Shown here: piece by piece, positions 6,852 through 45,798 of the stretch
How the letters are laid out: every line of letters starts with the position of its first letter
Position numbering within the stretch: the first letter of the stretch is position 1
Virus record (IMG/VR): IMGVR_UViG_3300009149_000045
Location: 1-52,285 of that record
DNA length: 52,285 nt
Source of the DNA: a virus
Direction: 5' to 3' (one strand)
Program-made: the position numbers and the translations under genes
Notes under the pieces: model-generated
The model's input: only the letters and a program-made list of their open reading frames with translations
Database searches by the model: none
What the model was told of the DNA's origin: nothing

Positions 6852-7775
6852 ATGAAAATAATATCAACAAAACATCCGATACTATTTAAAAATGTTGACG
6901 AAGTATATCGTCAACATTTAACAATGGATGCACTAAGAACTGGAACCTTTATACAATTAAATGGAACTTATGCGAGTCCATATGATTACTATGAACTAAT
7001 TACAAAATCATTAATTAATGGGGCATATAAACTTAAAGTGATATCAATGGATGATCTAGATAATGTTAATTCTGGAGTTGAAGGAACTGCAACCGTTTCT
7101 GGGTATGCTTTACCACCTAAAAATGTCGCAGTAACTTTATCAGGAAGTAATATTACTTTGACTTGGAGTCATTCTGTAAATGGTGCTCCTACTAATTATA
7201 AAGTGTATGGTAATGGAGGATCAGGAATAGTTATAGATAGGACTACTGTATTAAGTACAGTGATAGGAAGTCTTTTAACTTCAACTTTCGCTGTGGCCAA
7301 TGGTGAATGGTTACTTGTCGTGGAATCATTAACTAGTAGTAGTGAAAGTATAAATTTAGACACAGTTTCTATAACTGTCCCAGTAGCAGCAACGAAACCA
7401 CCAAGTCCTGGATTTGGCGGTAAGGCAAAGATAACTGGATTGTCATTAACAAGAGTTTCAGTAGGTAAGGTCAAGGTAAGATTTTATTGGTTGTATGGCA
7501 GTAGTGCAGCTTCTTTCAGAATATATCATGATGACGCAACAGGAACAATCAGTTATGTAACTCCAAAATTCTCATTTACTAGACAGAATAGTTATATTCA
7601 AGAATATACAACTACGGCATTACATACAGATGATGAAAACAAACAGTTTAAATTTGTAGTCAGATCAGTAACTTCAGATAGTGTAGAAGATACTAACACT
7701 GATGAATACACAATAGAAGTTGATGGTGATGCTCCTGATAACGCAACTATTATTTCTACGGAGTCTATATTCTAA
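6852..7775 (+). CDS. Fibronectin type III-like tail protein
   Basis: The 307-residue product contains at least one fibronectin type III-like domain, with PPKNVAVTLSGSNITLTWSH and the strand NYKVYGNGGSG at residues about 93-125, and a second related beta domain at about 190-300 (KVRFYWLYGSSAASFRIYHD). FN3 domains are common in tail proteins and usually assist surface attachment. The N-terminal 90 residues are different and may anchor it in the tail. Its stop overlaps the next start in a TAATG arrangement (7773-7777), which couples its translation to the large hub-like protein. Confidence 0.65.
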   Translation: MKIISTKHPILFKNVDEVYRQHLTMDALRTGTFIQLNGTYASPYDYYELITKSLINGAYKLKVISMDDLDNVNSGVEGTATVSGYALPPKNVAVTLSGSNITLTWSHSVNGAPTNYKVYGNGGSGIVIDRTTVLSTVIGSLLTSTFAVANGEWLLVVESLTSSSESINLDTVSITVPVAATKPPSPGFGGKAKITGLSLTRVSVGKVKVRFYWLYGSSAASFRIYHDDATGTISYVTPKFSFTRQNSYIQEYTTTALHTDDENKQFKFVVRSVTSDSVEDTNTDEYTIEVDGDAPDNATIISTESIF

Positions 7776-12614: not shown

Positions 12615-12640
12615 CCGTTATTACTATTATAACGGTTTTT
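12615..12640 (+). terminator. Intrinsic terminator after the tail operon
   Basis: A 7-bp stem CCGTTAT (12615-12621) and ATAACGG (12629-12635) with a 7-base loop is followed by TTTTT. It lies 26 bases after the stop of the spike gene and just before the ribosome site of the helicase gene, so it marks the end of the tail transcription unit. Confidence 0.75.
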
Positions 12641-12653
12641 GTATGGAGTAATC

Positions 12654-14504
12654 ATGAGAAATTGTGTAAGAACTCAACTATTGTCACATGGATGGATATT
12701 GTTAAATATAAAGGCTAACAGTCGTGAGCTTTTTAATAATATTCTAATTAAGTTAAAATCACAATTACCTGTGATGATATATGATAGAACTAGAAAACGT
12801 TATAAAGCTTCAATATTTTATTTAGATGAATTAAAAAATATCTGTGAAAAATATGGCATTGATCTGTATTGTTCACAAGGAACCTTAAAATATAAGAAAG
12901 ACTTTGATAGAAAGTTTAGTAATATACGAAATGTAAAAAATTCTAAAAAATTTAAATCTATATTTTGGACCGATAACAAAAAATGTCAATTATATCCAGA
13001 TCAAGTAAAAGCTGTTAATATCTTATTCAATACTTTGGGATGTAAATTAGGTGGTTTTGCTATTGGTGATGATATGGGAGTTGGTAAAACCGCTGAATCA
13101 CTAGCCGTAATGTGTAAACTGTTTGAAAATGGATATGAACAGACATTGATAGTTGTTCCTAATAGATTAAAATATCAATGGAAGGATGAAATATTAAAAT
13201 TTACAAAATTTAAAGAAAAAGATATAAGTGTGGTCGATGGCAACAATCTTAAATGCATACTTAATAAAATAGATAAACCTGATTTTAGAAAGCCATTGTG
13301 TAAAAAATGCAGTAGATGTGACGAATGCAAAAACTTAAAAACTAATCCTAATCTATTAAGGAATCTACAAATAAATAGTGGAATAATCATAATAATAAAT
13401 TATGAAATACTAGACAAACATAAAAAAGAATTGAAGAAAGAACAGTTTGATATAATTATAATAGACGAAGCGACTAGGATAAAGAATTTTAATTCTATAA
13501 GAACTAAAGCTTTCTTTGAAATTAGAAAAGCATTACCGGCACATTGTTTAATTTTTCCGATGTCTGGAACTTTTATTGAAAATAGATTAGAAGAAATATA
13601 TAATCCTTATACATTAATAAATCCTAAGATATTTGGAGAACATTATTGTTTTAAGAATCATTATTTATTGTATGATTATTATAACAGTGTCATAGGATAT
13701 AAAAATAAAAAGAGTCTTAAAAAGATAATAAGATCCTGGATGGTAAGACGTACAATCGAAAGTGTATGGAAGGACAGACCAAAACTTACAGAAATTACTA
13801 GAGTGTGTGTCATGAATGAAAAACATAGAAAGTTTTATGAAGATATAAAAACAGCTAAGATGGCAGAGCTTCATGATTTAGAATTACAAGATAAATTAAA
13901 CACTGCTTCCATTGGTGCGTTATTAATGTACCTCATACAGATTTGTGATTCAACAGAAACTATAGATCCAAATTTAAAGTTATCTTGTAAAATAGATTAC
14001 CTAAAGGAATTAGTAACGGAAGAAATATCAAGAAAGAAGAAGATCGTTATATTTTCATTTTTTGCTAATAAAGTGATTCCAATTATAAAAAGAGAATTGA
14101 ATGCTTTAAATTGTGGAAAAGTTTTATCAATCGTAGGCGGTGTTAGCCTAGACAAAGCAGAAATAATAAAGCAGAAATTTTTAACTAAGAAGGATTATAG
14201 ATTTTTAGTGTGTAGTGATTCTATGTCTTATGGAGCTAACTTGCAAGCGGCAGAATATGTTATAAATTTTGACCTTCTATGGAATCCTGCTACCTTAGAT
14301 CAAAGAATGAAGAGGGTGTACAGAAGGGGACAAAAGAATAATGTTACGGTTATAAATCTGGTGACTGAAAATACTATTGAAGATCGTATTATGGAAGTAT
14401 TAGGTTCAAAAAGAGAACTATTTTCCTATTTTATAGGTTATGGCAGTAAAAAAATAGTTAAGCCTACATTAAAAACTTTATTGAGTATTCTTAAGGCTAA
14501 TTAA
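12654..14504 (+). CDS. SNF2-family DEAD/H helicase-like ATPase with cysteine cluster
   Basis: The ATG at 12654 has a TGGAG ribosome site and is preferred over an in-frame TTG at 12639. The 616-residue product has the SNF2 motif set in order: Walker A DDMGVGKTAES near residue 140, LIVVPNRLKYQW, the Walker B-type box IIIIDEATRIKN near 270, MSGTFIENRLEE, and in the second RecA-like lobe SDSMSYGANLQAAEYVINFD and DQRMKRVYRRGQKNN. An insertion near residues 218-230 has C-x2-C-x2-C-x2-C spacing (CKKCSRCDEC) and may bind zinc. SNF2 proteins are dsDNA translocases; in phages related proteins act in replication or recombination restart. It is the first gene after the tail terminator. Confidence 0.9.
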   Translation: MRNCVRTQLLSHGWILLNIKANSRELFNNILIKLKSQLPVMIYDRTRKRYKASIFYLDELKNICEKYGIDLYCSQGTLKYKKDFDRKFSNIRNVKNSKKFKSIFWTDNKKCQLYPDQVKAVNILFNTLGCKLGGFAIGDDMGVGKTAESLAVMCKLFENGYEQTLIVVPNRLKYQWKDEILKFTKFKEKDISVVDGNNLKCILNKIDKPDFRKPLCKKCSRCDECKNLKTNPNLLRNLQINSGIIIIINYEILDKHKKELKKEQFDIIIIDEATRIKNFNSIRTKAFFEIRKALPAHCLIFPMSGTFIENRLEEIYNPYTLINPKIFGEHYCFKNHYLLYDYYNSVIGYKNKKSLKKIIRSWMVRRTIESVWKDRPKLTEITRVCVMNEKHRKFYEDIKTAKMAELHDLELQDKLNTASIGALLMYLIQICDSTETIDPNLKLSCKIDYLKELVTEEISRKKKIVIFSFFANKVIPIIKRELNALNCGKVLSIVGGVSLDKAEIIKQKFLTKKDYRFLVCSDSMSYGANLQAAEYVINFDLLWNPATLDQRMKRVYRRGQKNNVTVINLVTENTIEDRIMEVLGSKRELFSYFIGYGSKKIVKPTLKTLLSILKAN

Positions 14505-18008: not shown

Positions 18009-18336
18009 AAAATACGGAACAACAAGATATAAAACAGACGAAGAATTTATAAGCGAATTTATGAGAGAAACTAATGTAAGTAAAGAAAAGGCTGATATTT
18101 ATGTGAAAGCTTTTGCAGATTGTATAAAAAAGTGTGTAGAACTAAATGGCGTCTTAAATATAAGAGGATTGGGAATTTTTGCATTAAAATCAAAAAAGAA
18201 TATAAAAGTAAAGAGTTATAAGACTGGAGAAAATAAACTCATACCTATAATCTATAGAGTATTATTCGATGCTTCATTTTCTTTTAGAAATTTAATAAAT
18301 GCTAAGGTAAGAAAAAGTTTAAAGGATATGCAATGA
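18001..18336 (+). CDS. HU/IHF-family DNA-binding protein
   Basis: The 111-residue product has the HU/IHF layout: an N-terminal helical dimerisation part (SKEKADIYVKAFADCIKKCV), then the characteristic NIRGLGIFALKSKKNIKV strand pair, a beta-arm region and the closing helix FSFRNLINAKV. The usual RNPxT arm-tip motif is replaced by KTGENKLIPI, so it is a divergent member. It would bend or compact DNA. It overlaps both neighbours (start inside the thymidylate-synthase-like gene, end inside the polymerase start), placing it in the replication operon. Confidence 0.8.
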   Translation: MAKKYGTTRYKTDEEFISEFMRETNVSKEKADIYVKAFADCIKKCVELNGVLNIRGLGIFALKSKKNIKVKSYKTGENKLIPIIYRVLFDASFSFRNLINAKVRKSLKDMQ

Positions 18337-21300
18337 ATTATATAAATTTACATCAACATTCACACTATAGTAGATTAGACTCCAATGTTGATGTAGAGAC
18401 TTTGGTAAAAGTTAATAAAAAATTGGGAGCAAACGCCGTAGCTTTAACAGATCATGGAAATTTAGCGGGATCTTTTGAATTATGGAAACACTGTAGAAAT
18501 TATAAAGTAAAACCAATCCTAGGATTAGAAGCTTATTATGTAGATGATTACCAAAATGAAGCTGCACAAATTCCTTATTGCTATAGCCATATTATTTTAC
18601 TAGCTAAGAACGAAACTGGATGGAATAATTTAAAATATATGCAAGCTTATGCGTGGGAGTTAGGATTTAATAGAAAACCTAGGATAGATTTTAAATTATT
18701 AGAAGAACATAGAGAAGGAATAATAGTTACATCTGCTTGTACTGGTGGATTTTTAAATTCTTTATATCTCGGATATGATAAATATTATTCAGTTAAATCT
18801 TTTAAGATAAGAAAAAGGTTAGCAGTAAATCGTCTAAAGAAGTTTAAAAAACTTTTCGGAACTGATTTATATTTGGAAGTTCAATTAAATGATGTTGAAG
18901 ATTATGTAAGGGCAAATAAATTTATAATATCATTAGGTAAAAAGTATGATATTCCAATTATAGTATCAAATGATATTCATTATAAATGTAAAAAAGATGC
19001 AGAAATACATGATATAATAAAATGTGTATCTTTTAATAAGAAATTAAGTGAAGAAAATAATGGTACTTATGATACGCATAGTTTATATGTAGTTGGGTAT
19101 GATGGCTTAGTCGCATTTAAAGAAAAATGGCATGATGATTATATATCAGATTCACAACTAAAAGAATGGTGTAAAAATACACAAAAGATCGCAGATTGTA
19201 TTGAAGAATATCCTATAAAACCAGAACAAAGGACATTACCTTCCTTTTGTAAAGACCCTGACAAAAAATTAAAAGAAATATGCGATATTGGATTTCATAA
19301 TAAGATCATAAATTCTAATCAACCATATTACAAAAAAATGAGAAAAAATAAAAAAATTAGACAAGCCTATGTTGCACGGAATTTATATGAATTAAAGGTT
19401 ATTAAAGAATTAGGGTTCTCTGACTACTATCTGATAGTCTGGGACATAGTTAATAGGGCTAGGGTACTTGGTATACCTTTTAATATGCGCGGCTCTGTGT
19501 GCGGCTCTATGGCTGCTTTCTGCTGTGGAATATCTTGGATAGATCCTATAAGATTTAATTGCCCTTTTGAAAGATTCTTGACTGAAGATAGAATAAGTAT
19601 GCCAGATATGGATATGGATTTTGCTCAATCAAGACGTGAAGAAATGATTAGTTATGTTAGTGAAAAATATGGAGACGAATGTGTAGCACACATTGAAAAT
19701 TTTAGTAAGTGGAAACCTAAAGGTGCGATAAAAGATGTATGTAGGGTATTAGATATTAATTTTCAAGAAGCTAATACCATGACAAAGAAAATACCAGATG
19801 CTGTTAAAATCTGGAATGATATACCGATGGAAATAAACGGTATCCAAAACTTTTTTGATGAGCACGAAGACGTTGAATATTATGCAAAACAACTGATAGG
19901 ATTGATTCATGGTGCTGGAGTTCATGCTAGTGGTATTATAATAACACCAGATCTTCTTAAAAAATGGGTTCCAACTGCATACATGACTGTTAAAAACTCA
20001 GATGAGAAAAAGCCAGTAAAAGTAACTGAATGGGATATGTATGCTTTAGAAGAAATGAATATATTAAAATTAGATTTTCTTGGGCTTAGAAATTTAGATA
20101 TAGTGGCTGACTGTATAAGTTCTATAATTTCTAGATATGACGATCTACCATTTAATGACTTAGATACTATGTATGAACACATATTAGGAAATCTTGATGA
20201 TGATAAAATATATGGAATGTGTCGTAGTGGAAATCTAGTTGGCACATTTCAGATGGGTACAAGTGAAGGAATGCGTGATCTTATAGTAAAAATGGTCCCA
20301 ACTGATATTTCAGATATAATAAATTCAATAGCATTATACAGAACTGCTGTGCTTAAAGCTGGAATGCATTTAGAATATGTTAAGAGAAAATTTGGTGGAT
20401 ACCATAAAAGCATACATCCAAAATTAGACGAAGTATTAAAATCTACGAAGAACGTAATGATTTTTCAAGAACAATGTATGCAGACTGCGGTTACTATGGC
20501 GGGGTTTACACCATCAGACTCAGATCACTTTAGAAAAGGTATTAAATTAAAAGATCCAAAGAAATTTAAAGTATGGAAAAATAAATTTATAAAAGGCTGT
20601 ATGAAATATAGTAACACTGATAAGAAAAAAGCTAACGAAATATGGAAGTTTATTGAGAATTTTTCCGGTTATGGATTCTGTCTTTCCCACGCGACAAGTT
20701 ACGGTGTATTCGCTTACATAACGGCATGGTTGAAGTTTTATTATCCTATCGAATATATGGCTGCTCTGTTGTCTACAAGTATGGAAGATGATAAAAAACT
20801 AAGTATATATATTGCAGAAACAAAGAGAATGAAGATAAGAATAAAATCACCAGAAATTAATAAGTCATGCGAAAAATTTACAATATCTGGCAAAGAAATA
20901 ATATATCCATTTACTGCTATAAAGCAGTGTGGAACTAAAGCTGTAGAAGTAATTCTAAATGAAAGAAAAGAATCCGAATTTGAAGATTTTGGAGATTTCT
21001 TTAATAGAATAAATAAGAGGATAGTAAACGTTGGCGTGATGGTAAATTTAATTCTAGCTGGATGCTTTAGAAAATTTGGACCAAGGGCTAAGATATTTGA
21101 TAGACTAATGTCCTTGAGGGGTAAGGATAAAGTATTCAGAAGCTTATATTGTGAAGACTGTAAATACAGATATCCTATATCTTTAAAACTAAGTGACTAT
21201 GAAAGCAATAAAGCTTCTTGTCCTTCTTGTAATGGTAAAAATATTTCAGTTTATAATATAGATGGTAAGAAATTTGATATATCTTATGTAAATCTTAACG

Positions 21301-21668
21301 TATTTGGATTTACCTTTTCAGATAATCCCTTAAAACCTTATGCAGTGATGCTTATGACTGAAGACTGTGTTCCAATATCTACAGTAGAAGATATAGAAGA
21401 AAACGCTTCATTAAAATTTGGAGCAAGAGTAGTCAATATAAAATTACATAGAGATAAAAATGGGAATGAAATGGCATTTATAGATGTTAGTGATGGAAAA
21501 TTTAATTCTAGTATTACAGTGTTTGCTAGTGATTGGAATAGTCTAAAAGATAGAGTCAAAAAAGGTAACTGTTATATATTCGTTGCAAAGAAGAATAGAG
21601 GCGATAATTTTCTTTTAAATAGTTCTGTCAAGAATAATTGTGTGATTTTATCAAATAAGGTTAAATGA
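18333..21668 (+). CDS. dnaE: DNA polymerase III alpha subunit (DnaE-type)
   Basis: This 1111-residue protein is a complete C-family replicative polymerase. The N-terminal PHP domain begins with LHQHSHYSRLD and has LTDHGNLAG. The palm carries the catalytic Asp pair in PDMDMDF (residues 424-430) and the third Asp near residue 581 in LKLDFLGLRNLDIV. Downstream are FQEQCMQTAVTMAGF, the finger/thumb motif SGYGFCLSHATSYG, a helix-hairpin-helix part, a zinc-ribbon insertion CEDC and CPSC near residues 942-970, and a C-terminal OB-like domain. Phage-encoded DnaE polymerases are known but less common than family A or B enzymes. Start ATG overlaps the HU gene by four bases. Confidence 0.95.
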   Translation: MNYINLHQHSHYSRLDSNVDVETLVKVNKKLGANAVALTDHGNLAGSFELWKHCRNYKVKPILGLEAYYVDDYQNEAAQIPYCYSHIILLAKNETGWNNLKYMQAYAWELGFNRKPRIDFKLLEEHREGIIVTSACTGGFLNSLYLGYDKYYSVKSFKIRKRLAVNRLKKFKKLFGTDLYLEVQLNDVEDYVRANKFIISLGKKYDIPIIVSNDIHYKCKKDAEIHDIIKCVSFNKKLSEENNGTYDTHSLYVVGYDGLVAFKEKWHDDYISDSQLKEWCKNTQKIADCIEEYPIKPEQRTLPSFCKDPDKKLKEICDIGFHNKIINSNQPYYKKMRKNKKIRQAYVARNLYELKVIKELGFSDYYLIVWDIVNRARVLGIPFNMRGSVCGSMAAFCCGISWIDPIRFNCPFERFLTEDRISMPDMDMDFAQSRREEMISYVSEKYGDECVAHIENFSKWKPKGAIKDVCRVLDINFQEANTMTKKIPDAVKIWNDIPMEINGIQNFFDEHEDVEYYAKQLIGLIHGAGVHASGIIITPDLLKKWVPTAYMTVKNSDEKKPVKVTEWDMYALEEMNILKLDFLGLRNLDIVADCISSIISRYDDLPFNDLDTMYEHILGNLDDDKIYGMCRSGNLVGTFQMGTSEGMRDLIVKMVPTDISDIINSIALYRTAVLKAGMHLEYVKRKFGGYHKSIHPKLDEVLKSTKNVMIFQEQCMQTAVTMAGFTPSDSDHFRKGIKLKDPKKFKVWKNKFIKGCMKYSNTDKKKANEIWKFIENFSGYGFCLSHATSYGVFAYITAWLKFYYPIEYMAALLSTSMEDDKKLSIYIAETKRMKIRIKSPEINKSCEKFTISGKEIIYPFTAIKQCGTKAVEVILNERKESEFEDFGDFFNRINKRIVNVGVMVNLILAGCFRKFGPRAKIFDRLMSLRGKDKVFRSLYCEDCKYRYPISLKLSDYESNKASCPSCNGKNISVYNIDGKKFDISYVNLNVFGFTFSDNPLKPYAVMLMTEDCVPISTVEDIEENASLKFGARVVNIKLHRDKNGNEMAFIDVSDGKFNSSITVFASDWNSLKDRVKKGNCYIFVAKKNRGDNFLLNSSVKNNCVILSNKVK

Positions 21669-21768
21669 CAAAATAATACACATCTGATATTATGTTGAAG
21701 CGTTATATAGTATAATTGTTTTATGTTTGTTTTTTGGTTTATTTTTTTCTTTTTTAGGAGAACAAGAA

Positions 21769-22309
<541 letters not shown>

Positions 22310-22329
<20 letters not shown>

Positions 22330-22899: not shown

Positions 22900-23364
22900 A
22901 TGGTGAAAAAGAAGACTAGTAAGAAAGCTAGTAAACAAGAAAACAAGGAACATGATATTAGCCCAGATGCTCTTCCTGTATCAGAAACTATTATCAAGCG
23001 AGTAGAGCCAGATGAATATTACAAAGCACGTTTTGATGAATGTGTCATTGGTGAAGGTAAATTCGGACAATATGCTAGACTTGTGTTTACCATATTGTCT
23101 GGTAATATTGAAGACTCTGATGAATCAGCAAAAGATTTACGAATGTCAGCCTTGTGTCCAGCAAACATAACACCGAATAATTCTGCATGGCCACTGATGA
23201 AAGGAATCACTGGTAAAGATCCTGAAGTGAATGAAGCTGTAGACATCACCCCATTCTATGGAAAAATTTATAAGGTAATGGTTAGCGACGGAAAAGCTAA
23301 ACCTGATGGATTTATTTCACAGAATATCACGAAAATAAAGAAATATGTAAGGAAGGCAAAATAA
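22900..23364 (+). CDS. Putative ssDNA-binding (OB-like) protein
   Basis: The 154-residue product has a strong AAGGAG site and a Lys-rich start (MVKKKTSKKASKQ). The core resembles phage ssDNA-binding or DUF669-type proteins: YYKARFDECVIGEGKFGQYA followed by RLVFTILSG and later VNEAVDITPFYGKIYKVMV, a strand pattern compatible with an OB fold. It lacks the acidic tail of classical SSB, but the neighbouring acidic-repeat protein carries such a tract. The stop overlaps the recA start by one base (TAATG). An ssDNA-binding role next to RecA is likely but not proven. Confidence 0.45.
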   Translation: MVKKKTSKKASKQENKEHDISPDALPVSETIIKRVEPDEYYKARFDECVIGEGKFGQYARLVFTILSGNIEDSDESAKDLRMSALCPANITPNNSAWPLMKGITGKDPEVNEAVDITPFYGKIYKVMVSDGKAKPDGFISQNITKIKKYVRKAK

Positions 23365-24482
23365 TGTTCGATGAAATAGAATCTATCGTAAATAACGCAA
23401 GAAAGAAATTTGGTAAAGAATCTGCGTATATATTGAGCTCTAACCATAAGATTAATGTGCCAACTATACGGTCTGGTGTTCCACAGATTGACCTTGCGCT
23501 AGGGATAGGGGGCTGGCCGAGAGGTAGAATAGTAGAAATATATGGTAGTGAATCTTCTGGTAAGACTACGCTTGCGTTACATGCGATTGCTAATGCACAG
23601 AAAAAAGGTAATATATGTGCATTTGTAGATGCAGAACATGCATTAGATCCTGACTGGGCTGAGAAAATAGGAGTTGATAAAGATGGTATGATTATTTCTC
23701 AGCCCAATAGCGGTGAGGAAGCTTTAGATTTAGTACAGATGTATGCGGAAGCAGGAGTCGGCATTGTAGTTATAGATTCAGTAGCTGCGCTGACTCCTGA
23801 AGCCGAATTAACAGCAGATATGGGAGCGACCCATATGGGTCTACAAGCTAGACTTATGGGTCAAGCAATGAGAAAGTTAAGGGGTATTTTGAGAGAAACA
23901 AATACTCTTTGTCTTTTTTTAAATCAGATAAGGCATAAGATTGGTGTTGTATTTGGAAGTCCTATAACAACTCCTGGTGGAAATGCATTGAAATTCTTTT
24001 CTAGCATACGTCTGGAATTAAGTGCTTATGCACCAAAAGAGGGTGATAAGCAAGGAGATAAAGTTGTTAGTAGGGATATAAGGTTTAAGGTGGTAAAGAA
24101 TAAATTGGCTCCTCCATTTAAAATTGGTACTGCTAAAATAGGTTTTGAAAATGGGTTTGATTTGGCTAATAATCTAATTGATGGTATGATGGGAACTGGT
24201 TCTCTAGAAAAGACTGGTAATACTTATTCATACAATGAAGAAAAAATTGCGGTTGGTAAAAATAAAGTTATTGAATATTTTAGAAATCTAGACGAAGATA
24301 CTTTAGAAGGAATGTACGATAATCTTATATTGGACATGAATGAAGAATATCAAGAATTAAAGATTAGAAAACAGCAGATTGAAAAGAATATTATTAAAAG
24401 AAAAGAGAAGAATAAAGATGTTTCTGATAAAGAAGAAGAGCTAAAGGGAATTGAAGAAAAAATCGCTCGTATTAAAAAATAA
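23364..24482 (+). CDS. recA: RecA recombinase
   Basis: The 372-residue product is a clear RecA. It has Walker A GSESSGKTT (residues 61-69), the segment CAFVDAEHALDPDWA (86-100), Walker B VVIDSVAAL (135-143), the L1/L2-type segments GLQARLMGQAMRKL and FLNQIRHKIGVVFGSPITTPGG, and the strand FFSSIRLEL. The C-terminus is a Lys/Glu-rich helix rather than the usual short acidic tail. It binds ssDNA and promotes strand exchange. It is coupled to the upstream OB-like gene, and the Rad50/Mre11 and resolvase genes follow, forming a double-strand-break repair set. Confidence 0.97.
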   Translation: MFDEIESIVNNARKKFGKESAYILSSNHKINVPTIRSGVPQIDLALGIGGWPRGRIVEIYGSESSGKTTLALHAIANAQKKGNICAFVDAEHALDPDWAEKIGVDKDGMIISQPNSGEEALDLVQMYAEAGVGIVVIDSVAALTPEAELTADMGATHMGLQARLMGQAMRKLRGILRETNTLCLFLNQIRHKIGVVFGSPITTPGGNALKFFSSIRLELSAYAPKEGDKQGDKVVSRDIRFKVVKNKLAPPFKIGTAKIGFENGFDLANNLIDGMMGTGSLEKTGNTYSYNEEKIAVGKNKVIEYFRNLDEDTLEGMYDNLILDMNEEYQELKIRKQQIEKNIIKRKEKNKDVSDKEEELKGIEEKIARIKK

Positions 24483-24584
24483 CTAACAGTGGTATAATGC
24501 TACCAAAAAAATTAAACAATATTCCCAGAACAATCTCTATAGCTATAGAATTATAATAATTTGCATATAATAGATAGGGTTTGT

Positions 24585-24935
24585 ATGAGTAAAAGACATG
24601 GTAAAAAAAAGATTAAAAAAATCATAAAAACAAAAAAGAAAATAAGATATTTTCCTATTATATTTTGCATAAATGAAGATATATGCATTGGTGTTTCCAG
24701 TAAATACGCTAAAATTAAGTCTGATAGGTTTGGAGTTGTTAAACTAAAAAGTAAAGTTGATTTTGAACAATGGACTCCGTACGTTTGTAAGTTTAGATCA
24801 GAAGAATATATAATAGATTTAAGCTTGTATAAAATAGGAGATGAAATACACTGTCCTAAATGTGGTAGTAAAATAGATTTTAGGCTGTTTCCATCAAGCA
24901 CTCCACCTGTTATGGTTGAGATAAAAAATGATTAA
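24585..24935 (+). CDS. Small basic CxxC protein (116 aa)
   Basis: The ATG at 24585 has TAGGG upstream; an in-frame TTG at 24561 has none. The N-terminus is very basic (MSKRHGKKKIKKIIKTKKK), and one CPKCG motif lies near residue 90, a half zinc-knuckle that could pair with another Cys (FCINEDIC near 30). About 100 bases precede it with TATAAT-like sequences (24551, 24567), suggesting a promoter after recA. It overlaps the Rad50 N-terminal half gene by eight bases. A nucleic-acid-binding role is a guess from charge and context. Confidence 0.5.
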   Translation: MSKRHGKKKIKKIIKTKKKIRYFPIIFCINEDICIGVSSKYAKIKSDRFGVVKLKSKVDFEQWTPYVCKFRSEEYIIDLSLYKIGDEIHCPKCGSKIDFRLFPSSTPPVMVEIKND

Positions 24936-26001
24936 AACAATAACTTTAAGGAATTTCCAGATTCATAAATATAAAAAATTCGATTTCGATAAAGGTTTTA
25001 ATGTTATTCTTGGAGAGAACGACCGTGGTAAAAGTTCAATAATTAGAGCTTTGCACTGGATAATATATAATAAGCCTTCTGGTAATTGGATGTGTAAGAT
25101 TGACGATGATGGAGAATTATTAACTACTTCAGTAAAAATAGTTAGCTCAAATGGTGATGTAGTAATAAGAAAAAAAGGTCCAGAGGTAAATAGATATATC
25201 GTAAATGGAGACGCTTTTAATAATTTTGGATTTGATGTACCAAAATCAGTAAAAGATATTTTAGGTATTGATTTTTTAAACTTGAATGGTATTAACGTCA
25301 GTCCTAATGTGAGCATGGATTACGATTTACCATTCATGATCTTTGAAAAGAACACAACTAAGGCCGCACTGATAAATAATTTAACTGGGATTGATTTAGT
25401 AGAAAAAGCAAAGAAATCGTTTAATCGAGATATTTTAAACAATTCAAAAATGATATCGTTTTATAAAACAGAATTAGATAAAAATGAAAAGGAATTAAAA
25501 ACACTTCCTTATATAGCAGACATAAAAGAAGATTGTTTAGACATCGAAATAAAATTTATTGAATATGAAAGTGAGAATGAAAGGTTATCTAACTTGAAAA
25601 TTTTTGAAAATAGTTTAAATAGATTAAATAAAGATCTAAATTCCATAAACCACAAAGAAGATATACTGAGTAGTATGCACAGAGTAGATATGATTTTGAA
25701 GGAATATAAAAAGGATAAGGATACAGTTCTAAAATTATCTGATTTTAAAACTAACTTGAATTTTTATGAAAAATCTTGTGACGACTGTGTGTTAAGCGTT
25801 GATCTAGATATTGTAAAAGCTAAACTCAAGGATAATCAGTTTATGGAAGAAAAGATTGCTGATTTAGCTCAAATCAAAAAAGACTTAGATAATTATTTAG
25901 AAATTATTAAAAAATATGATAATATTCTAAAAGGCATAAAGAAAGAATACAATAAATTAAAAGGAAAGGCTTGTCCTTTGTGTGGTAAAAAATATGATTG
26001 A
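24928..26001 (+). CDS. Rad50/SbcC N-terminal half with zinc hook
   Basis: The 357-residue protein begins like Rad50/SMC ATPases: ITLRNFQIHKYKKFDF and Walker A GENDRGKSS (residues 29-37), followed by IIRALHWIIY. From about residue 170 it is coiled coil, and it stops at the C-terminus with GKACPLCGKKYD, a CxxC zinc hook with Cys at 349 and 352. A complete Rad50 would continue after the hook into the returning coil and the Walker B half; here that second half is a different gene at 27170. The stop overlaps the ATG of the Mre11-like gene. So the ATPase must assemble from two chains. Confidence 0.85.
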   Translation: MIKTITLRNFQIHKYKKFDFDKGFNVILGENDRGKSSIIRALHWIIYNKPSGNWMCKIDDDGELLTTSVKIVSSNGDVVIRKKGPEVNRYIVNGDAFNNFGFDVPKSVKDILGIDFLNLNGINVSPNVSMDYDLPFMIFEKNTTKAALINNLTGIDLVEKAKKSFNRDILNNSKMISFYKTELDKNEKELKTLPYIADIKEDCLDIEIKFIEYESENERLSNLKIFENSLNRLNKDLNSINHKEDILSSMHRVDMILKEYKKDKDTVLKLSDFKTNLNFYEKSCDDCVLSVDLDIVKAKLKDNQFMEEKIADLAQIKKDLDNYLEIIKKYDNILKGIKKEYNKLKGKACPLCGKKYD

Positions 26002-26953
26002 TAAATTCTGCTTTATAACAGATACCCATTTTAAAAATAAAACGCCAGTTAGTAGATCTGATGATTATTTTTTATCGTTATTAAAAAAGCTAGATTACGT
26101 TATAGAATTTTGTAAGAAAAGAAAAATAAAAAGTTTATTACATGGTGGTGATTTCTTTGATAGTCCATTTTCTTCCGACTATGTTGCTGGAATTGTAGCT
26201 AAGAGATTGACACTCTCAGGACTTAACGTGTATGCTATATTAGGAAATCATGATATAACAGGTAAAAATGCAGATTCTTATGTAAATGGTAAGATGCATC
26301 TATATGAATCATATCCTTGGTTCTATTTAATTGATAAGAAATATATAGAATTTGATAATTGTTATATAACGGGATTTAATTATTCAATAGATAATGAATG
26401 CCCTAATAGAATCATGGTTGATAAAAAAGATAAACCAGTAATAGCATTAATTCATTCTATGATATCAGAAGACAATGATATTCAGATTGGTAGCAAATTT
26501 AATGTTGTATCAGCCAAGACAATTATATCTAATGCAAGTATTGTCCTTATGGGTCACTATCACCTTGGATGCAGATTAGTAGAATATCCAATATCGGGGA
26601 GATGGTGTAATCCTGGGAGTTTTGCGAGATTAAGTACATTAGAAAACAATAAAGGTATAGGTCCAGGACTAGTTTATTTAAAAGCTTCAGATAGTATTGT
26701 AAAGGCAAAGAGGCTTATAATTCCTCATGATGATAGTGTATTCTCAAATAAGGTTGATGTAAAAGATCTATTCGAAGATAAAAAAGTATTTGAATTAGCG
26801 ATGAAAGAATTAGAGAATAGCGAAAATTCAAATAACAATGTTATACACACACTAAGAAGGTTAGAAAAAAATATCCCTAAAGTACTAGAAAAGCTGATAA
26901 ATAAAAAAATTATTAGAAATTGTATTAATAGAATTAAGGAATTTCAAAATTAA
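25994..26953 (+). CDS. Mre11/SbcD-like nuclease
   Basis: I use the ATG at 25994, which overlaps the TGA of the Rad50 N-half; a GTG at 25982 is also in frame. The 319-residue product has all calcineurin-like phosphoesterase motifs: ITDTHF (D10, H12), HGGDFFDS (D53), LGNHDITG (N85, H86), LIHSM and MGHYHLG. It should cut DNA ends with its Rad50 partner. The last 60 residues are helical and may bind the Rad50 coiled coil. Its place between the two Rad50 halves is unusual; T4-type phages keep gp47 and an unsplit gp46 as neighbours. Confidence 0.9.
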   Translation: MIDKFCFITDTHFKNKTPVSRSDDYFLSLLKKLDYVIEFCKKRKIKSLLHGGDFFDSPFSSDYVAGIVAKRLTLSGLNVYAILGNHDITGKNADSYVNGKMHLYESYPWFYLIDKKYIEFDNCYITGFNYSIDNECPNRIMVDKKDKPVIALIHSMISEDNDIQIGSKFNVVSAKTIISNASIVLMGHYHLGCRLVEYPISGRWCNPGSFARLSTLENNKGIGPGLVYLKASDSIVKAKRLIIPHDDSVFSNKVDVKDLFEDKKVFELAMKELENSENSNNNVIHTLRRLEKNIPKVLEKLINKKIIRNCINRIKEFQN

Positions 26954-26964
26954 GGAGGATAAGT

Positions 26965-27213
26965 ATGTCAGAAGACATAGTCAAAAGGATACAACGCTTA
27001 AATACTGAACAAGCTATTGCTCTAAGTGAAAAAGAAAAGGCAGAAAAGAACATAAAAGAGATCATGCAAAAACTGTCTAGTCTAGATATTCATTCGAATA
27101 AAGAACTATCTTCAGAAATAAAAATTTTAGAAGATAAGCTAAAATTAAAAGAAAAGGAACTAGAAAAGAATGTTAGCAAAATTGAAAGCGAACTCAAAGC
27201 AAGAAAGAATTAA
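26965..27213 (+). CDS. Small coiled-coil protein, likely part of the Rad50 arm
   Basis: The 82-residue product, behind AAGGAGGATAAGT, is almost entirely heptad-like (IQRLNTEQAIALSEKEKAEK and repeats of Lys-Glu-Leu) with no Cys. It ends 44 bases inside the gene for the Rad50 C-terminal half, which is in the +1 frame relative to it. It could be a separate subunit that supplies the returning coil of the Rad50 arm, or the first part of a product joined to the next by frameshifting. No independent function is evident. Confidence 0.65.
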   Translation: MSEDIVKRIQRLNTEQAIALSEKEKAEKNIKEIMQKLSSLDIHSNKELSSEIKILEDKLKLKEKELEKNVSKIESELKARKN

Positions 27214-27778
27214 TAATATAAGAATGGAATTAAGTTCAATCGATGGAAGTAAGAAAATAATAAATAACACAATAAAGAGGATATCAAAAGATCTGGTTAA
27301 TATAGAAAAAGAAAAGAATGTAGCAACAAAATCAGTTATGTTGCTAGATTATGTTATTAATAATAGCCATGATAATATTATAAACATGTTTGAAAAGGCA
27401 ATTAGTGGAGCGTTAAAAGATCTTTTTGATAGTTCATATGAATTTAAATTCGAGTTTGGTAAACGTGGTACAGCTATGACCTGTGAATATATGATAAAGA
27501 TGGGTGATTGCCATAACTGGCTTACACTGAAAATGTGTCACGGTACAAGTATAAAAGAAATAATAGGAGTTATAATTAGAATTATATTTGTAAAGATCAA
27601 AAATAATTTAGCCAATGTGGTCATACTAGACGAACCTCTATCGGGTTTATCACCAGAAAAACAAGTATTAGCTGGAAAATTTTTAGTAGAAATTGCAGAA
27701 AAGTTTAATATTCAAATAATATCTGTTAGCCATAGTGAAAGAATTTCTTCTTATGCATCTAAAAGGATAGAAATATAA
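27170..27778 (+). CDS. Rad50/SbcC C-terminal half
   Basis: The 202-residue product has a coiled-coil start (residues 1-60), then an ATPase C-lobe: EFKFEFGKRGTAMTCEY, Walker B VVILDEPLSGLSPEK (about 150-164) with the D-loop, and the H-loop as SVSHSE (His 188). The ABC signature position reads KMCHGTSIKEI near 121-131, so the usual Leu-Ser-Gly-Gly is degenerate. It has no Walker A, which the gene at 24928 provides. The ATG at 27170 overlaps the upstream coiled-coil gene by 44 bases, and the stop overlaps the next gene as TAATG. Confidence 0.85.
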   Translation: MLAKLKANSKQERINNIRMELSSIDGSKKIINNTIKRISKDLVNIEKEKNVATKSVMLLDYVINNSHDNIINMFEKAISGALKDLFDSSYEFKFEFGKRGTAMTCEYMIKMGDCHNWLTLKMCHGTSIKEIIGVIIRIIFVKIKNNLANVVILDEPLSGLSPEKQVLAGKFLVEIAEKFNIQIISVSHSERISSYASKRIEI

Positions 27779-28290
27779 TGCCTAGCGAATCTAGTTTCTC
27801 AAGTATAATAAGAAAAGACTTTAACACTGTATACCGTGAAAATGGAAAATCAATATTATTAGTAGACGCACCTAGATCTAATAAAAAAGATTGTGATGTT
27901 TTATTATACAAGGCAATAGAGAATAATCATGTAGATGCGTTAGCAATAGAGTTAAAATATGAAAAGGGTAATAGTATAAATTTTGCGAGAGTATCCTCTA
28001 ATCAAGTAATAAGTTTAAAAGAATGTGAATCAAGTAACATCAATACTTGGGTTCTTATATGGTTTTATAAATTCAAAACCGCTATTGCATTGAATATTTT
28101 TGCGTGGACGTATTTAGAAAAAGATTTTCAAGCTGAAAGCAGAAAATCTATAAAATTTGAAGAACTCGTATGGTTTATAGAAAAGTTAGAGGAGGATGAT
28201 CGATTCCATAGATGTGGACAAATTTTAAAGAGAAAAAAGATAGAAGATAAAACACGCTGGGAAGTTGAAAAGTTATTTACTAGGAGATAA
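27778..28290 (+). CDS. RecU-like Holliday junction resolvase (PD-(D/E)XK)
   Basis: The 170-residue product matches the RecU / penicillin-binding-protein-related factor A layout. It has a DCDVLLYKAIENNHVDALAI stretch leading to E58-x-K60 in IELKYEKGN, then FARVSSNQVISLKECE with the conserved Gln, and a following strand NTWVLIWFYKF. Asp40, Glu58 and Lys60 are the likely metal-binding residues. These enzymes cut four-way junctions after RecA-driven exchange, which suits its place right after Rad50/Mre11. Another PD-(D/E)XK nuclease role cannot be excluded. Confidence 0.75.
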   Translation: MPSESSFSSIIRKDFNTVYRENGKSILLVDAPRSNKKDCDVLLYKAIENNHVDALAIELKYEKGNSINFARVSSNQVISLKECESSNINTWVLIWFYKFKTAIALNIFAWTYLEKDFQAESRKSIKFEELVWFIEKLEEDDRFHRCGQILKRKKIEDKTRWEVEKLFTRR

Positions 28291-29706: not shown

Positions 29707-30806
29707 ACGACTTTAATCCAATGAAGATTTTAGTTCATAATGAGAAAATAAATCAACTCATAGATTTTCATAAAAAACAAACGAATCATATACCATATCC
29801 AGTTATGTTAGAAATAGATTTGTCAAATGTGTGTAACTTCAGATGCAGTTTCTGCCAGTGTGGTGCGAATTTAGATAAATCACATCTAAAACATTTTATA
29901 GATGAAGAAGATTGGTTTTATAATCTTCTTCCATTTATAATTAAAAATAAGATAAAAGGGTTGTTTTTCTGTGGTGGTGGTGAACCGTTATTAAATAAAG
30001 GTGCTAATAAAATTATTAGTTCTTTGATAGATTTGAATATAAAATCAGCAATTACTTCTAATGGTAGCCACATTGATTCATTAGATTCAGAAGTCTGTGC
30101 TAACACTTGTGAATGGATTACGTTTTCAGTCAATGCAGGTGATGAAAATACATTTATGATGACCAGTAATCCTTTAGATGTTAAGCTTACTTGGGAATCT
30201 TATATAAATAATTTAAGATCATTCGTAGAAGGTGTTAGAAAATATAGAAAAAATGTATCACCAGAACTATCGTATAAATTTGTAGTTACACCAGAAAACT
30301 ACGCTTCCTTGAAAGCAGGATATAATTTAGCGGTTGATATGGAATTTGATCAATTTATTATAAAACCCGCAGATTTAATTTGGTCACGTGACGGATTTAA
30401 AAAGGATTGGGATTTAGAAACTAGATTAGAAATCAATAAAATAATCTTAGATCTTAATAATGAAAATAAGATAAAGGTAAAGTCTTTAGAAGCTTATTGG
30501 CAACAAGATGATATGTCAAAAAAGGAAAGAGGATATGACATCTGTTGGACACAAAGTCTGGCTCCAGTATTACACCCTGATGGCAATATGTCAATCTGTT
30601 GCGATATGCGAGAAATATACAATATAGGTAAGTGGGATAATCCGTCGCTACAAAATTTTTGGGGAAGTTGGAGTCACATAAAAGCAGTTAGAGGATTTAA
30701 CAAAAGAGGGCTAGGTGGTTGCCCCATAAGATGTAAAATGGGTAGATACAATAAGGTAGTAAACGATATTTTCATAGATAAGAAAGTACACACATGCTTC
30801 CTATAA
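29694..30806 (+). CDS. Radical SAM enzyme with SPASM-like C-terminal cysteines
   Basis: The ATG at 29694 follows AAGGGAATCTAAT; an in-frame ATG at 29673 lies deeper in the previous gene. The 370-residue product has the radical SAM iron-sulfur motif CNFRCSFC (C47, C51, C54), then FFCGGGEPLLNKG as the SAM-binding Gly-Gly-Glu motif, and AITSNGSHI. The C-terminal part has more cysteines (DICWTQS, MSICCDMRE, GGCPIRCK), typical of SPASM/twitch domains that bind extra clusters and modify peptides or other large substrates. It overlaps the next radical SAM gene by 13 bases. The substrate is unknown. Confidence 0.88.
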   Translation: MSVVDDFNPMKILVHNEKINQLIDFHKKQTNHIPYPVMLEIDLSNVCNFRCSFCQCGANLDKSHLKHFIDEEDWFYNLLPFIIKNKIKGLFFCGGGEPLLNKGANKIISSLIDLNIKSAITSNGSHIDSLDSEVCANTCEWITFSVNAGDENTFMMTSNPLDVKLTWESYINNLRSFVEGVRKYRKNVSPELSYKFVVTPENYASLKAGYNLAVDMEFDQFIIKPADLIWSRDGFKKDWDLETRLEINKIILDLNNENKIKVKSLEAYWQQDDMSKKERGYDICWTQSLAPVLHPDGNMSICCDMREIYNIGKWDNPSLQNFWGSWSHIKAVRGFNKRGLGGCPIRCKMGRYNKVVNDIFIDKKVHTCFL

Positions 30807-32158
30807 AAGTTACGATCATTATACCACCAGAACCAATTTTAGATGAACCTTATAGCAATCAACCATTCGGTATTGTGCGTGTATATTCTTTGATGAAAGA
30901 GATAGTTGAAGAAGTTAATTTATTAGACTTAAGAGGTGAAAAGGATATAAAAAATATCAAGCTTGAACGTGCAGACGTTTTTATGTTCACTGCTGTATCA
31001 ATGGAAATAGGTGGTGTTAATCAGTTAGCTAAAATTATTAAAGAAAATTTTAATAGTTTGATAATTCTTGGTGGACCGCATATAAATTCTTTACACAAGA
31101 GTACTGTATGGCTTGAAAGTGATATTATAAAAAATCATCCAGATATTGATATATTTGCTATAGGTCAATATATGGATAAAGAATCACTAAAAGAAATGTT
31201 TTATGTATATGACTATGTTAAGGATTCTCCATTATTTTATAAATCTAAGTGTAAATCTTTTAATGTTGAAGATTTAGATTATAGCTGTTTAGAAAAGTAT
31301 GCATCTTCAAACGCTTCTATCATAAGAAAAGAAAATTTATCATTGATCGCTCAAAACACTATAACAGGGCTAGGGTGTGCGTTTAACTGCTCTTTTTGTG
31401 CAAACCCTCTAAGAACGATTCAAAGGGGCTCCCCAAAGCTTGTAATCAACCACTTGCAACTAATGGTTGACAAATATGGTATCGAAGCTTTTAAACTCAG
31501 CGACGATGATATATTACAGAATAGAAAGTGGATAGAAGAATTTTTAATTGAATTAAAAAAATCTAATTTGAAAACAAATTATTTGATTTCAACTAGACCA
31601 GATTTTATTAACAAGTCGTGGAAAATGGGGGTATTAGAAGAGTTTAGAGACCTTGGATTAATCAAGGTTGGAATAGGCGTGGAGAGTGCTGACAATAGAG
31701 TACTTTTAAATGTGAATAAACTTATAGATATTAATGAAATAAAATTATCTATTTTGTGCTTGCATTCGATTAGACTAGACGCATTATTATATACAATCTT
31801 CGGACTTATGCCGTTTGATAAGCTTGCAATAAATAATAATATAGAGTTCATAGATTGGTGTAAAAATATGAATGTTGAATCTGTAAATATGACACAATTA
31901 GTTCCACTTCCTGGCTGTGATATTTATGATAGATATTCAGAAGGATGCGGTTATAAAAATAATGTACGATATCCATATAATGATATATCTTGGGAAAAGT
32001 TCTGTTTCGTTGGGAATCATTTTAATAAACATATACACTGTTTGCCAGACAATGTAACAGAGGAAGAATATATAGAATATAGATTAAAGACTACTGATAA
32101 GCTAAAAGCTTGTGGTTTTATGCGGACTGAAATGCAAAAGGATGAAAATTTAAAATGA
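30794..32158 (+). CDS. B12-binding-like radical SAM enzyme
   Basis: The 454-residue product has a Rossmann-like N-terminal domain with ADVFMFTAVSMEIGG and LIILGGPHINSL, the layout of cobalamin-binding radical SAM proteins, although the DxHxxG cobalamin ligand motif is not evident. The radical SAM core follows with CAFNCSFC (C195, C199, C202), FKLSDDDIL and a GIGVESADNRVLLNVNK strand. Members catalyse methylations and other difficult reactions, for instance in antibiotic or lipid pathways. It overlaps the radical SAM gene before and the glycosyltransferase-like gene after by four bases, so the three are a cassette. Confidence 0.85.
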   Translation: MLPIKVTIIIPPEPILDEPYSNQPFGIVRVYSLMKEIVEEVNLLDLRGEKDIKNIKLERADVFMFTAVSMEIGGVNQLAKIIKENFNSLIILGGPHINSLHKSTVWLESDIIKNHPDIDIFAIGQYMDKESLKEMFYVYDYVKDSPLFYKSKCKSFNVEDLDYSCLEKYASSNASIIRKENLSLIAQNTITGLGCAFNCSFCANPLRTIQRGSPKLVINHLQLMVDKYGIEAFKLSDDDILQNRKWIEEFLIELKKSNLKTNYLISTRPDFINKSWKMGVLEEFRDLGLIKVGIGVESADNRVLLNVNKLIDINEIKLSILCLHSIRLDALLYTIFGLMPFDKLAINNNIEFIDWCKNMNVESVNMTQLVPLPGCDIYDRYSEGCGYKNNVRYPYNDISWEKFCFVGNHFNKHIHCLPDNVTEEEYIEYRLKTTDKLKACGFMRTEMQKDENLK

Positions 32159-33810
32159 ATATTGGATGGGCTAGATTATCAATGTCAATAGAACTAGATT
32201 TTAATATCGCGAAATCTGGATTTAGTCAAGAACGATGTCCCATAATTAGAAATTTAATGAAGCGTGGACATAATATAACTCTATATACTCCAATAACAAA
32301 GAAAGAAGAAAAAAATATAGAAAGCATTAAAGCTGGTAACATCAGTGAATTGTGGGATAATAGTCACATATCAGATATTAGTTATGAGCCTACTGGATTA
32401 CCAGACATAAATTGTGATATTTTAATAGTGGAATCTGGTGCATTAAATTTTGGATTTTTTGATAAATTTAATGATACTCCACAAATACGAAGGATGTCTA
32501 ATATAATAGACGCTCATAAAGGTTTAGTAATACTGCTACAAAATGATCCTGATTTACCATTTCCATTTTATAAGCTTGCAGGTTGTGAAAGAGACTGGAA
32601 TCATGAGGAAAACCCATATAGGTTAGGCAGTGGTACGATAAAAGAATGCACAAATTTAGAAGATTATGGATGGGCAACTTACGATGAAATATTTAAAGAT
32701 AAAAAATGGATTGTCTTAACTAAATCAGCTAACGAAGAATTAGTTTGGGAAGCATTTGATACTTCGAGAGCAAGATTTAAAAGTTTTGATAATGAATTAA
32801 CTCTAAAATTTTTACCAACCCCACAAACAAGTGAATTCGTAAATAAATTTGAAGTATGCGAGAAACCAGAATATGATATATTCTGCCCAGGATACCCTAG
32901 AAATAGGGAAAAAAGTTTTGAATCATTATTTTTACAGTTTGTTAAATATTATAACTTAGTATCTTGCGGTTTATGGGGCAGGGCTAAGAATTTTGACTAT
33001 AAAACAGATTGCATAGAACTTGGAATGAAATGTTTAGGATTTATTGATAATTATTTAGATATGTATAAAGCAATAAATAATTCAAACACAGTTATCCATT
33101 TAGGAGTTGGTAAAACAAGAAAATTGGGATGGATAACAGGTAGATATATTGAAGGAATTTTTTGTAAATCAATAGCGTTTTATGATGATAATATGATCGG
33201 TTATGACAATTATATAGATTACAGATTTGGTGTTAATAAAGAAAACGCTTATGAAAAATATAAATGGATTAGTAAATTAACACATGATCAAAGAAGAAAA
33301 TTGTGGGCTTATCAATATGATCTTGTTAAAACATACACCATTGCGAATTTTGTAGATAATCTTGAAAAAATCTGGATTGAAACTGGTATAGATAACAAAG
33401 TAGATGAAGAAAAAATTAAAAAATATTCATACATATATAATGAAGAATTAGTAGATCACAATATAGAATATACTCAAGATGAAATTGACGGAATATTTAA
33501 TCTTCTGGGGCAGAAAGCAACTATCAAAAATAAGCGTATGATGAAAAAATTACTCAAGAAATTAAGGAAGCCAAAAATTGAAATAATCACTATGGTCGAA
33601 CCAGAAGTTGAACCAGAAGTACCAATAATAGAAGAAATAATGTCCGATATTAAAGTTCCTGCAGAATTAGCATTACCAGTAGAACAAAAGGATGAAATTC
33701 TAGTTAAGAAAGAAATACCAGCAGAAATTGAAGCAATCTTAACAAAATTAGGCATAGAGAAAAGAGATGGTCTTAAAATTTATATAAAAGAAACTTTTAT
33801 TTGTTATTGA
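32155..33810 (+). CDS. CgeB-like GT-B glycosyltransferase with charged C-terminal tail
   Basis: The 551-residue product starts with a GT-B style N-lobe (MNIGWARLSMSIELDF, CDILIVESGALNFGFF) and has a C-lobe with DIFCPGYPRNREKSFESLFL, SNTVIHLGVGKTRKLGW and TGRYIEGIFCKSIAFYDD, resembling the sugar-nucleotide-binding half of CgeB-type enzymes. From residue about 470 it has a linker with PEVEPEVP and Lys/Glu-rich sequence, ending in a small domain (EAILTKLGIEKRDG) that may bind a partner. It is coupled by ATGA to the upstream radical SAM gene. A transferase acting on a product made by the two radical SAM enzymes is a reasonable inference. Confidence 0.6.
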   Translation: MNIGWARLSMSIELDFNIAKSGFSQERCPIIRNLMKRGHNITLYTPITKKEEKNIESIKAGNISELWDNSHISDISYEPTGLPDINCDILIVESGALNFGFFDKFNDTPQIRRMSNIIDAHKGLVILLQNDPDLPFPFYKLAGCERDWNHEENPYRLGSGTIKECTNLEDYGWATYDEIFKDKKWIVLTKSANEELVWEAFDTSRARFKSFDNELTLKFLPTPQTSEFVNKFEVCEKPEYDIFCPGYPRNREKSFESLFLQFVKYYNLVSCGLWGRAKNFDYKTDCIELGMKCLGFIDNYLDMYKAINNSNTVIHLGVGKTRKLGWITGRYIEGIFCKSIAFYDDNMIGYDNYIDYRFGVNKENAYEKYKWISKLTHDQRRKLWAYQYDLVKTYTIANFVDNLEKIWIETGIDNKVDEEKIKKYSYIYNEELVDHNIEYTQDEIDGIFNLLGQKATIKNKRMMKKLLKKLRKPKIEIITMVEPEVEPEVPIIEEIMSDIKVPAELALPVEQKDEILVKKEIPAEIEAILTKLGIEKRDGLKIYIKETFICY

Positions 33811-45631: not shown

Positions 45632-45790
45632 ATGGCAATATCCGTTAGAACACGTAAAAAAGAAGAAAGTATTGGTGTAAAAATATGGGAAATATCGTGT
45701 TTACTCGCAAGCATATCCGGTGGGATTGTGTTAAGTATCTATTTATGCATATGGATTGTATATAAAATTATCTGTTGGATTTTTTCTTAG
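45632..45790 (+). CDS. Small membrane protein (52 aa)
   Basis: An ATG at 45632 follows TTGGGAGATAAAAT and opens 52 codons: a basic start (MAISVRTRKKEES), then two close hydrophobic stretches (ISCLLASISGGIVLSIYLCI and WIVYKIICWIF). It ends at 45790, 8 bases before the ligase ATG. Topology suggests one or two membrane passes. No homology is recognised. Confidence 0.55.
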   Translation: MAISVRTRKKEESIGVKIWEISCLLASISGGIVLSIYLCIWIVYKIICWIFS

Positions 45791-45798
45791 GGGAGGCT

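What the first reader, a model, noticed from the sequence alone, without database searches (positions are those of the whole stretch)
24928..27778. Rad50 split into two genes with an Mre11 gene between the halves
The gene at 24928 encodes the Walker A lobe and ends right at a CxxC zinc hook (Cys349, Cys352). The Mre11-like nuclease follows at 25994, then a coiled-coil gene at 26965 and a gene with the Walker B lobe and H-loop at 27170. All necessary motifs are present but on separate chains, and the ABC signature is degenerate (KMCHGTSIKEI). Known phage systems such as T4 gp46/gp47 have an unsplit Rad50. The break lies exactly at the hook apex, as expected for a functional split rather than decay.
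Basis: partly seen in the sequence, partly recalled or inferred. Interest (0 to 1): 0.75.

Follow-up and report, generated by a model that had tools for sequence, protein, structure and literature searches.

The report
Three-piece Rad50 split at zinc hook
Rad50, the long-armed ATPase that normally is one protein and works with the nuclease Mre11 to repair broken DNA, is here made as three separate proteins, cut exactly at its zinc-binding tip; the same cut occurs in many phages and in the chromosomes of many bacteria, where it sits beside recA and seems to replace the usual one-piece form.

Summary
In the window the Walker A lobe (N, 24928-26001) ends five residues after CPLC; Mre11 (25994-26953), an 82-aa helical hairpin "K" (26965-27213) and the Walker B lobe (C, 27170-27778) are separate genes. 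It is not decay or a sequencing error: 60 of 64 non-redundant homologous N chains stop 2-16 residues after CxxC, and 132 loci (some redundant) carry all four genes in three orders (N-M-K-C, M-N-K-C, N-K-C-M), always N before K before C. N and C profiles hit solved archaeal Rad50 best (2e-16, 5e-17). The module is also chromosomal: 29 of 43 cellular loci lie between recA and RNase Y, and most of those genomes tested lack a recognisable one-piece SbcC. Three genomes carry a natural Mre11-N-C fusion that has lost arm, hook and K together. The N arm shows a 47-residue repeat absent from three full-length controls. Best reading: a functional multi-chain Mre11-Rad50 complex, a new variant of a known kind, not found described in the papers searched. 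Chain pairing, the role of K, zinc binding and activity are inferred, not shown.

The parts
24928..26001 (+). N chain: Rad50 Walker A lobe (Walker A at 25012-25035), arm, and terminal half zinc hook CPLC (25972-25983)
   Evidence: phrog_16465 1e-35; PDB Rad50 2e-16 with family profile; AlphaFold model pLDDT 82.5; motifs
25994..26953 (+). Mre11/SbcD-like nuclease, all metal-site motifs intact
   Evidence: Pfam Metallophos 2e-11; phrog_100 1e-16; motifs
26965..27213 (+). K: 82-aa helical hairpin subunit, near-universal in the family and always between N and C in gene order
   Evidence: AlphaFold model of 46-sequence alignment: helices 2-39 and 45-81, pLDDT 87.9; present beside C in nearly all loci
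27170..27778 (+). C chain: Rad50 signature/Walker B/H-loop lobe with a short N-terminal coil; signature 27539-27550, Walker B 27617-27637, H-loop 27725-27736
   Evidence: phrog_15167 4e-14; PDB Rad50 5e-17 with family profile; motifs
23364..24482 (+). RecA-type recombinase just upstream, as in the cellular loci (50% identical to Tissierella RecA); probable functional partner
   Evidence: Pfam RecA 6e-102
27778..28290 (+). RecU-like Holliday junction resolvase directly downstream; probable functional neighbour
   Evidence: phrog_843 1.5e-8; Pfam RecU 2e-4, below its cut-off

Best explanation
The four genes encode one Mre11-Rad50 (SbcCD-type) DNA-end-processing complex whose Rad50 is assembled from separate chains. 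Inferred mechanism: N and C lobes meet to form one ABC half-head (Walker A from N; signature, Walker B and H-loop from C); two such heads sandwich ATP, bind DNA and gate an Mre11 nuclease dimer; the N arm ends in a half zinc hook, so two N chains can be clasped through one zinc ion; K is an arm-associated hairpin subunit. In the phage it acts with the adjacent RecA-type recombinase and RecU-like resolvase in recombination and repair. Shown by computation: separate ORFs, intact catalytic and hook motifs, relation to Rad50 and Mre11, conservation of the split, shared inheritance, and Mre11-N-C fusions in nature. Inferred: complex formation, chain pairing, zinc binding, activity and the role of K.
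For: Split with hook at the N terminus end conserved in 60 of 64 N clusters; hook cysteines invariant in 40 chains; C-lobe Walker B invariant in 38; Rad50 is the best PDB match for both halves; four-gene module in 132 loci, N before K before C in all three orders; tree groups follow gene order and distance matrices of the four proteins correlate at 0.76-0.94; natural Mre11-N-C fusions without arm, hook or K and an Mre11-N fusion with separate C; recA-linked chromosomal locus without recognisable SbcC. From established knowledge: the classic P. furiosus Rad50 head structures (1f2t, 1ii8) were made from separately expressed N and C segments, which assemble; their two chains are listed apart.
Against: No complex, zinc or activity was tested. 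The window sits on a long branch with uncertain placement and its C signature departs from the family consensus. K and C lengths do not follow the N arm length, so the ordinary antiparallel coiled-coil picture cannot hold for the whole arm. Some members have no CxxC (L003, L056/L072, L086). The structure search of the N model matches RecF and SMC heads as well as Rad50.
Confidence: 0.85

Rival explanations
1. The halves are products of a frameshift, sequencing error or pseudogene decay of an ordinary one-piece Rad50.
For: One cellular copy (Tissierella sp. P1, L156) does have its N gene broken in two frames, so such breaks occur.
Against: The same split with the same end point recurs in 60 of 64 N clusters, with other genes often lying between the pieces, own ribosome sites in the window, and conserved Walker and hook residues.
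Confidence: 0.01
2. N and C are ABC ATPases of another role (RecF-like, or an anti-phage or counter-defence ATPase) that merely neighbour an Mre11-like phosphoesterase.
For: N matches defence ATPases such as LmuB, GajA and PtuA at 1e-9 to 1e-11. The N model matches RecF heads at Z 12. The Mre11 of Mvi-JY20 has altered motifs (GQHD, GDTH).
Against: Most defence matches cover only the P-loop region (one LmuB match is longer); Rad50 is the best solved relative of both halves by sequence profile. RecF has no arm or hook. Mre11 motifs in the window are intact and Mre11-N-C occur as one protein. Cellular copies lie in a recA core locus.
Confidence: 0.1
3. N and C each act alone, for example as an N-only zinc-clasped tether and a separate C-only ATPase-like regulator, rather than forming one head.
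For: In Microbacterium phage Magritte the two genes are about 40 kb or more apart and N has no CxxC.
Against: Neither half has a complete ATP site, both keep their halves of it, they are co-inherited and fused in three genomes.
Confidence: 0.04

Closest known systems
Mre11-Rad50 / SbcCD of archaea and bacteria; phage T4 gp46/gp47
   Same: Walker A lobe, CxxC hook, Walker B lobe, Mre11 partner; best PDB sequence relatives of both halves are archaeal Rad50
   Different: Rad50 is encoded as three chains cut right after the hook; extra hairpin subunit K; 47-residue arm repeat not seen in controls
Mre11/Rad50 fusion proteins such as Mimivirus R555 (PMC3175470)
   Same: Fusions of Mre11 to Rad50 parts also occur here (L020, L170-L172)
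   Different: Those mostly keep a whole Rad50 in one chain. The paper notes two (Anaerostipes, Bacillus phage 0305phi8-36) in which one NTPase segment was not seen; whether they belong here was not tested
PHROG families phrog_16465 (exonuclease) and phrog_15167 (ATPase)
   Same: The N and C chains of the window match them
   Different: They are filed as separate families, without a note that they are the halves of one Rad50
Laboratory two-chain Rad50 head constructs (PDB 1f2t, 1ii8; recalled from knowledge, chain lists)
   Same: N and C segments as separate polypeptides that assemble
   Different: Man-made and without arm; here the split is natural and lies at the hook

Membership tests
Rad50/SbcC | Walker A lobe related to Rad50 | tested here: met
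   PDB Rad50 2e-16 with N profile; Walker A present
Rad50/SbcC | Signature, Walker B and H-loop lobe related to Rad50 | tested here: met
   PDB Rad50 5e-17 with C profile; Walker B invariant; signature is SGGG-type and drifted in the window
Rad50/SbcC | CxxC zinc hook at the tip of the arm | tested here: met
   CPLC 349-352, invariant in 40 N chains; zinc binding itself not tested
Rad50/SbcC | Both lobes and arm in one polypeptide | tested here: not met
   Three separate ORFs in the window and in relatives
Rad50/SbcC | Single continuous antiparallel coiled-coil arm | tested here: inconclusive
   47-residue repeat; K and C lengths do not follow the N arm; no complex model
Rad50/SbcC | Encoded with Mre11/SbcD | tested here: met
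   Mre11 gene in the module in the window and nearly all loci
Rad50/SbcC | ATP-dependent nuclease or tethering activity of the complex | not testable with these tools
   Needs purified proteins
Mre11/SbcD | Calcineurin-like phosphoesterase with the metal-site motifs | tested here: met
   Metallophos 2e-11; DTH, GGD, GNHD, GHYH

The most novel reading that the evidence does not exclude
A separate lineage of Mre11-Rad50 machines in which Rad50 is a hetero-oligomer and the arm is not the usual single antiparallel coiled coil: it is built on the N chain from 47-residue repeats, ends in a half-hook, and is served by a dedicated hairpin subunit K. This lineage would be the main SbcCD-type machine of much of an order of Firmicutes and shared with phages.
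Probability: 0.45. Interest if true: 0.85.

Novelty: new variant of a known kind. Interest (0 to 1): 0.76.

Why it matters
Whether the arm and hook of Rad50 signal to the ATPase heads through a continuous chain is a standing question. A natural Rad50 cut exactly at the hook, and natural Mre11-Rad50 fusions that dropped arm, hook and third subunit together, let it be tested with native proteins. It also gives a likely function to gene families annotated as hypothetical protein or ATPase, in phages and in the recA locus of many Firmicutes, and would explain why ordinary SbcC is not recognised in those genomes.

Tried and rejected
Single-protein scans of viral contigs with the window's N and C chains found nothing: the window is very divergent. 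The idea that K is simply the missing return strand of the coil: K and C keep their length while the N arm varies, so it holds at most in part; the post-hook tail of the L020 fusion resembles K only weakly. Hook distances in clean steps of 47 residues were not found. Intein or frameshift rejoining was rejected because N stops within 2-16 residues of the hook (no room for an intein half) and other genes can lie between the pieces. Searches of the open-access library found no description of a split Rad50/SbcC; subscription journals and preprints are not covered. K matched no curated family above cut-off, only coiled-coil noise.

Full report
Observation. The window is a whole 52,285-base uncultivated virus record. 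N (24928-26001) carries Walker A GENDRGKS and stops five residues after CPLC. Mre11 starts at 25994, overlapping the N stop, and keeps DTH, GGD, GNHD and GHYH. K (26965-27213) has a textbook ribosome site. C (27170-27778) carries Walker B VVILDEP and H-loop VSHS. N falls in phrog_16465 (exonuclease, 1e-35), C in phrog_15167 (ATPase, 4e-14), Mre11 in the SbcD-like phrog_100. A RecA-type gene lies upstream and a RecU-like resolvase directly downstream.

The same split elsewhere. Bacillus phage vB_BboS-125 has N (471 aa, ending ICPLCEQTHKGGGC), an AP2 gene, a 78-aa K, C, and then an unannotated Mre11. Microcystis phage Mvi-JY20 has exactly the window's order N-Mre11-K-C, with N ending 14 residues after CSQC. 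Scans of IMG/VR with an N alignment and with the vB_BboS-125 C lobe gave 80 and 27 loci, partly from the same contigs. Of 64 N clusters at 70% identity, 60 end 2-16 residues after CxxC, one is a fusion (L020), and three lack CxxC. In 40 aligned N chains only P105, C349 and C352 are invariant. In 38 C chains G125, D154 and E155 are invariant and the signature is SGGGxVDV, so the unusual signature is largely a family trait, though the window has drifted further.

Identity. The N profile hits M. jannaschii Rad50 best in the PDB (2e-16); the C profile hits P. furiosus Rad50 best (5e-17). The AlphaFold model of N (pLDDT 82.5) shows an ABC half-head, helices 155-192, 195-281 and 293-344, then the hook, and matches RecF, SMC and Rad50 heads over about residues 1-190; the structure comparison alone does not single out Rad50. 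K is predicted as a helical hairpin, residues 2-39 and 45-81, pLDDT 87.9. Where the first K profile missed it, a 78-96 aa hairpin-like ORF was found just before C in nearly all loci.

Cells. One scan of genome contigs gave 43 loci, nearly all with the four genes. In 32 of 43 a recA lies about 1-2 kb before the Mre11 gene, and in 29 an RNase Y gene follows as well. In Tissierella praeacuta the order is ftsK, a radical-SAM/TRAM (miaB-like) gene, pgsA, cinA, recA, Mre11, N, K, C, rny. So this is a core chromosomal locus there. Of 15 such genomes, strong hits to SbcC (TIGR00618, 123-130 bits) occur only in Brevibacillus and Sutcliffiella, whose split copies have the phage-type order; the others reach at most 38 bits. 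The SbcC Walker B domain is over its cut-off only in those two and in one 1358-aa frame of Caloramator. Absence of one-piece SbcC rests on these two models. Counted by me from the tables, about 63 of 398 genomes sampled from the phylum of Aedoeadaptatus have a separate C-lobe frame, and about 85 of 150 in its order.

Fusions. Three genomes have one ~700-aa protein with Mre11, N and C in that order, with no arm, no CxxC and no K found alongside in the stretches read (L170-L172). L020 has Mre11 fused to N with a separate C gene. These link the pieces functionally and tie K to the presence of the arm.

Evolution. The only four-gene orders found are N-M-K-C, M-N-K-C and N-K-C-M (132 loci, some redundant), always N before K before C, the order they would have along one Rad50 chain. 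A tree of N+M+C groups loci by gene order; the window is a long branch whose placement is not firm. Distance matrices correlate: C-M 0.94, M-K 0.90, C-K 0.89, N with the others 0.76-0.77, against permutation maxima of 0.08-0.13. This shows shared inheritance, not by itself contact.

Arm. The N arm has a 47-residue periodicity: lag 47 is the strongest lag over 88 non-redundant N chains (mean z 5.0) and lag 94 the second; in the window lag 47 ties for the top (z 3.2). Three full-length controls, two SbcC and one further SbcC/SMC-like ATPase, show nothing at lag 47 (z 0.8, -0.3, 0.2). The distance from Walker A to the hook differs between groups (medians 312, 428, 473) while K (77-84) and C (203-214) stay nearly constant. 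So K plus the C coil cannot pair along the whole N arm: the N arm pairs with itself, or with a second N chain, or is partly single. This is unresolved.

Literature. No description of a split Rad50 or SbcC was found in the open-access library. A paper on Mre11/Rad50 fusions mentions two in which one NTPase segment was not observed (PMC3175470), possibly related and not tested here. A jumbo-phage survey treats SbcC and SbcD as near-universal without mentioning a split in the passages read (PMC7824862).

Conclusion. The split is real, conserved and very probably functional. It is a new variant of the Mre11-Rad50 machine, not a new kind. What remains unproven is the assembly itself, the role of K, and the fold of the arm.

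Noticed in passing
L144 4907-11047; L129 and 27 further cellular loci: Split Rad50 module sits between recA and rny (RNase Y) in Tissierella, Peptoniphilus/Aedoeadaptatus, Caloramator, Halalkalibacterium and others.
   Followed up: partly
L170 2652-4754, L171 2764-4818, L172 3583-5670: Single ~700-aa Mre11-N-C proteins with no arm, no CxxC and no K: a coil-less Mre11-Rad50.
   Followed up: partly
window 25390-25960 and relatives: 47-residue tandem periodicity in the arm of the N chain, absent from three full-length controls.
   Followed up: partly
L008 3633-4592: Mre11 of Microcystis phage Mvi-JY20 has altered metal-site motifs (GQHD, GDTH) though the module is otherwise whole.
   Followed up: no
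L003 5001-6053 and L005 284-934: Microbacterium phage Magritte has N (no CxxC) and C far apart in its genome.
   Followed up: no
L056, L072, L086: N chains that end in CPIFDVPC, with six residues between the cysteines, in place of CxxC.
   Followed up: no
L156 6983-8435: N gene of Tissierella sp. P1 is broken into two frames; error or real decay not decided.
   Followed up: no
window 21727-22329: Gene with a long run of Asp-Glu/Asp-Lys repeats (about 80 residues of DEDEDKDE).
   Followed up: no
window 24561-24935: 124-aa gene just before N with a CPKC zinc-ribbon-like end; no family match above cut-off.
   Followed up: no
window 1817-3697, 7775-10402, 10399-12588, 30794-32158, 32155-33810: Large genes without any PHROG match at 1e-5, beside a DNA polymerase (18333-21668), helicase (12639-14504) and NAD-dependent ligase (45775-47697) that match well.
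   Followed up: no
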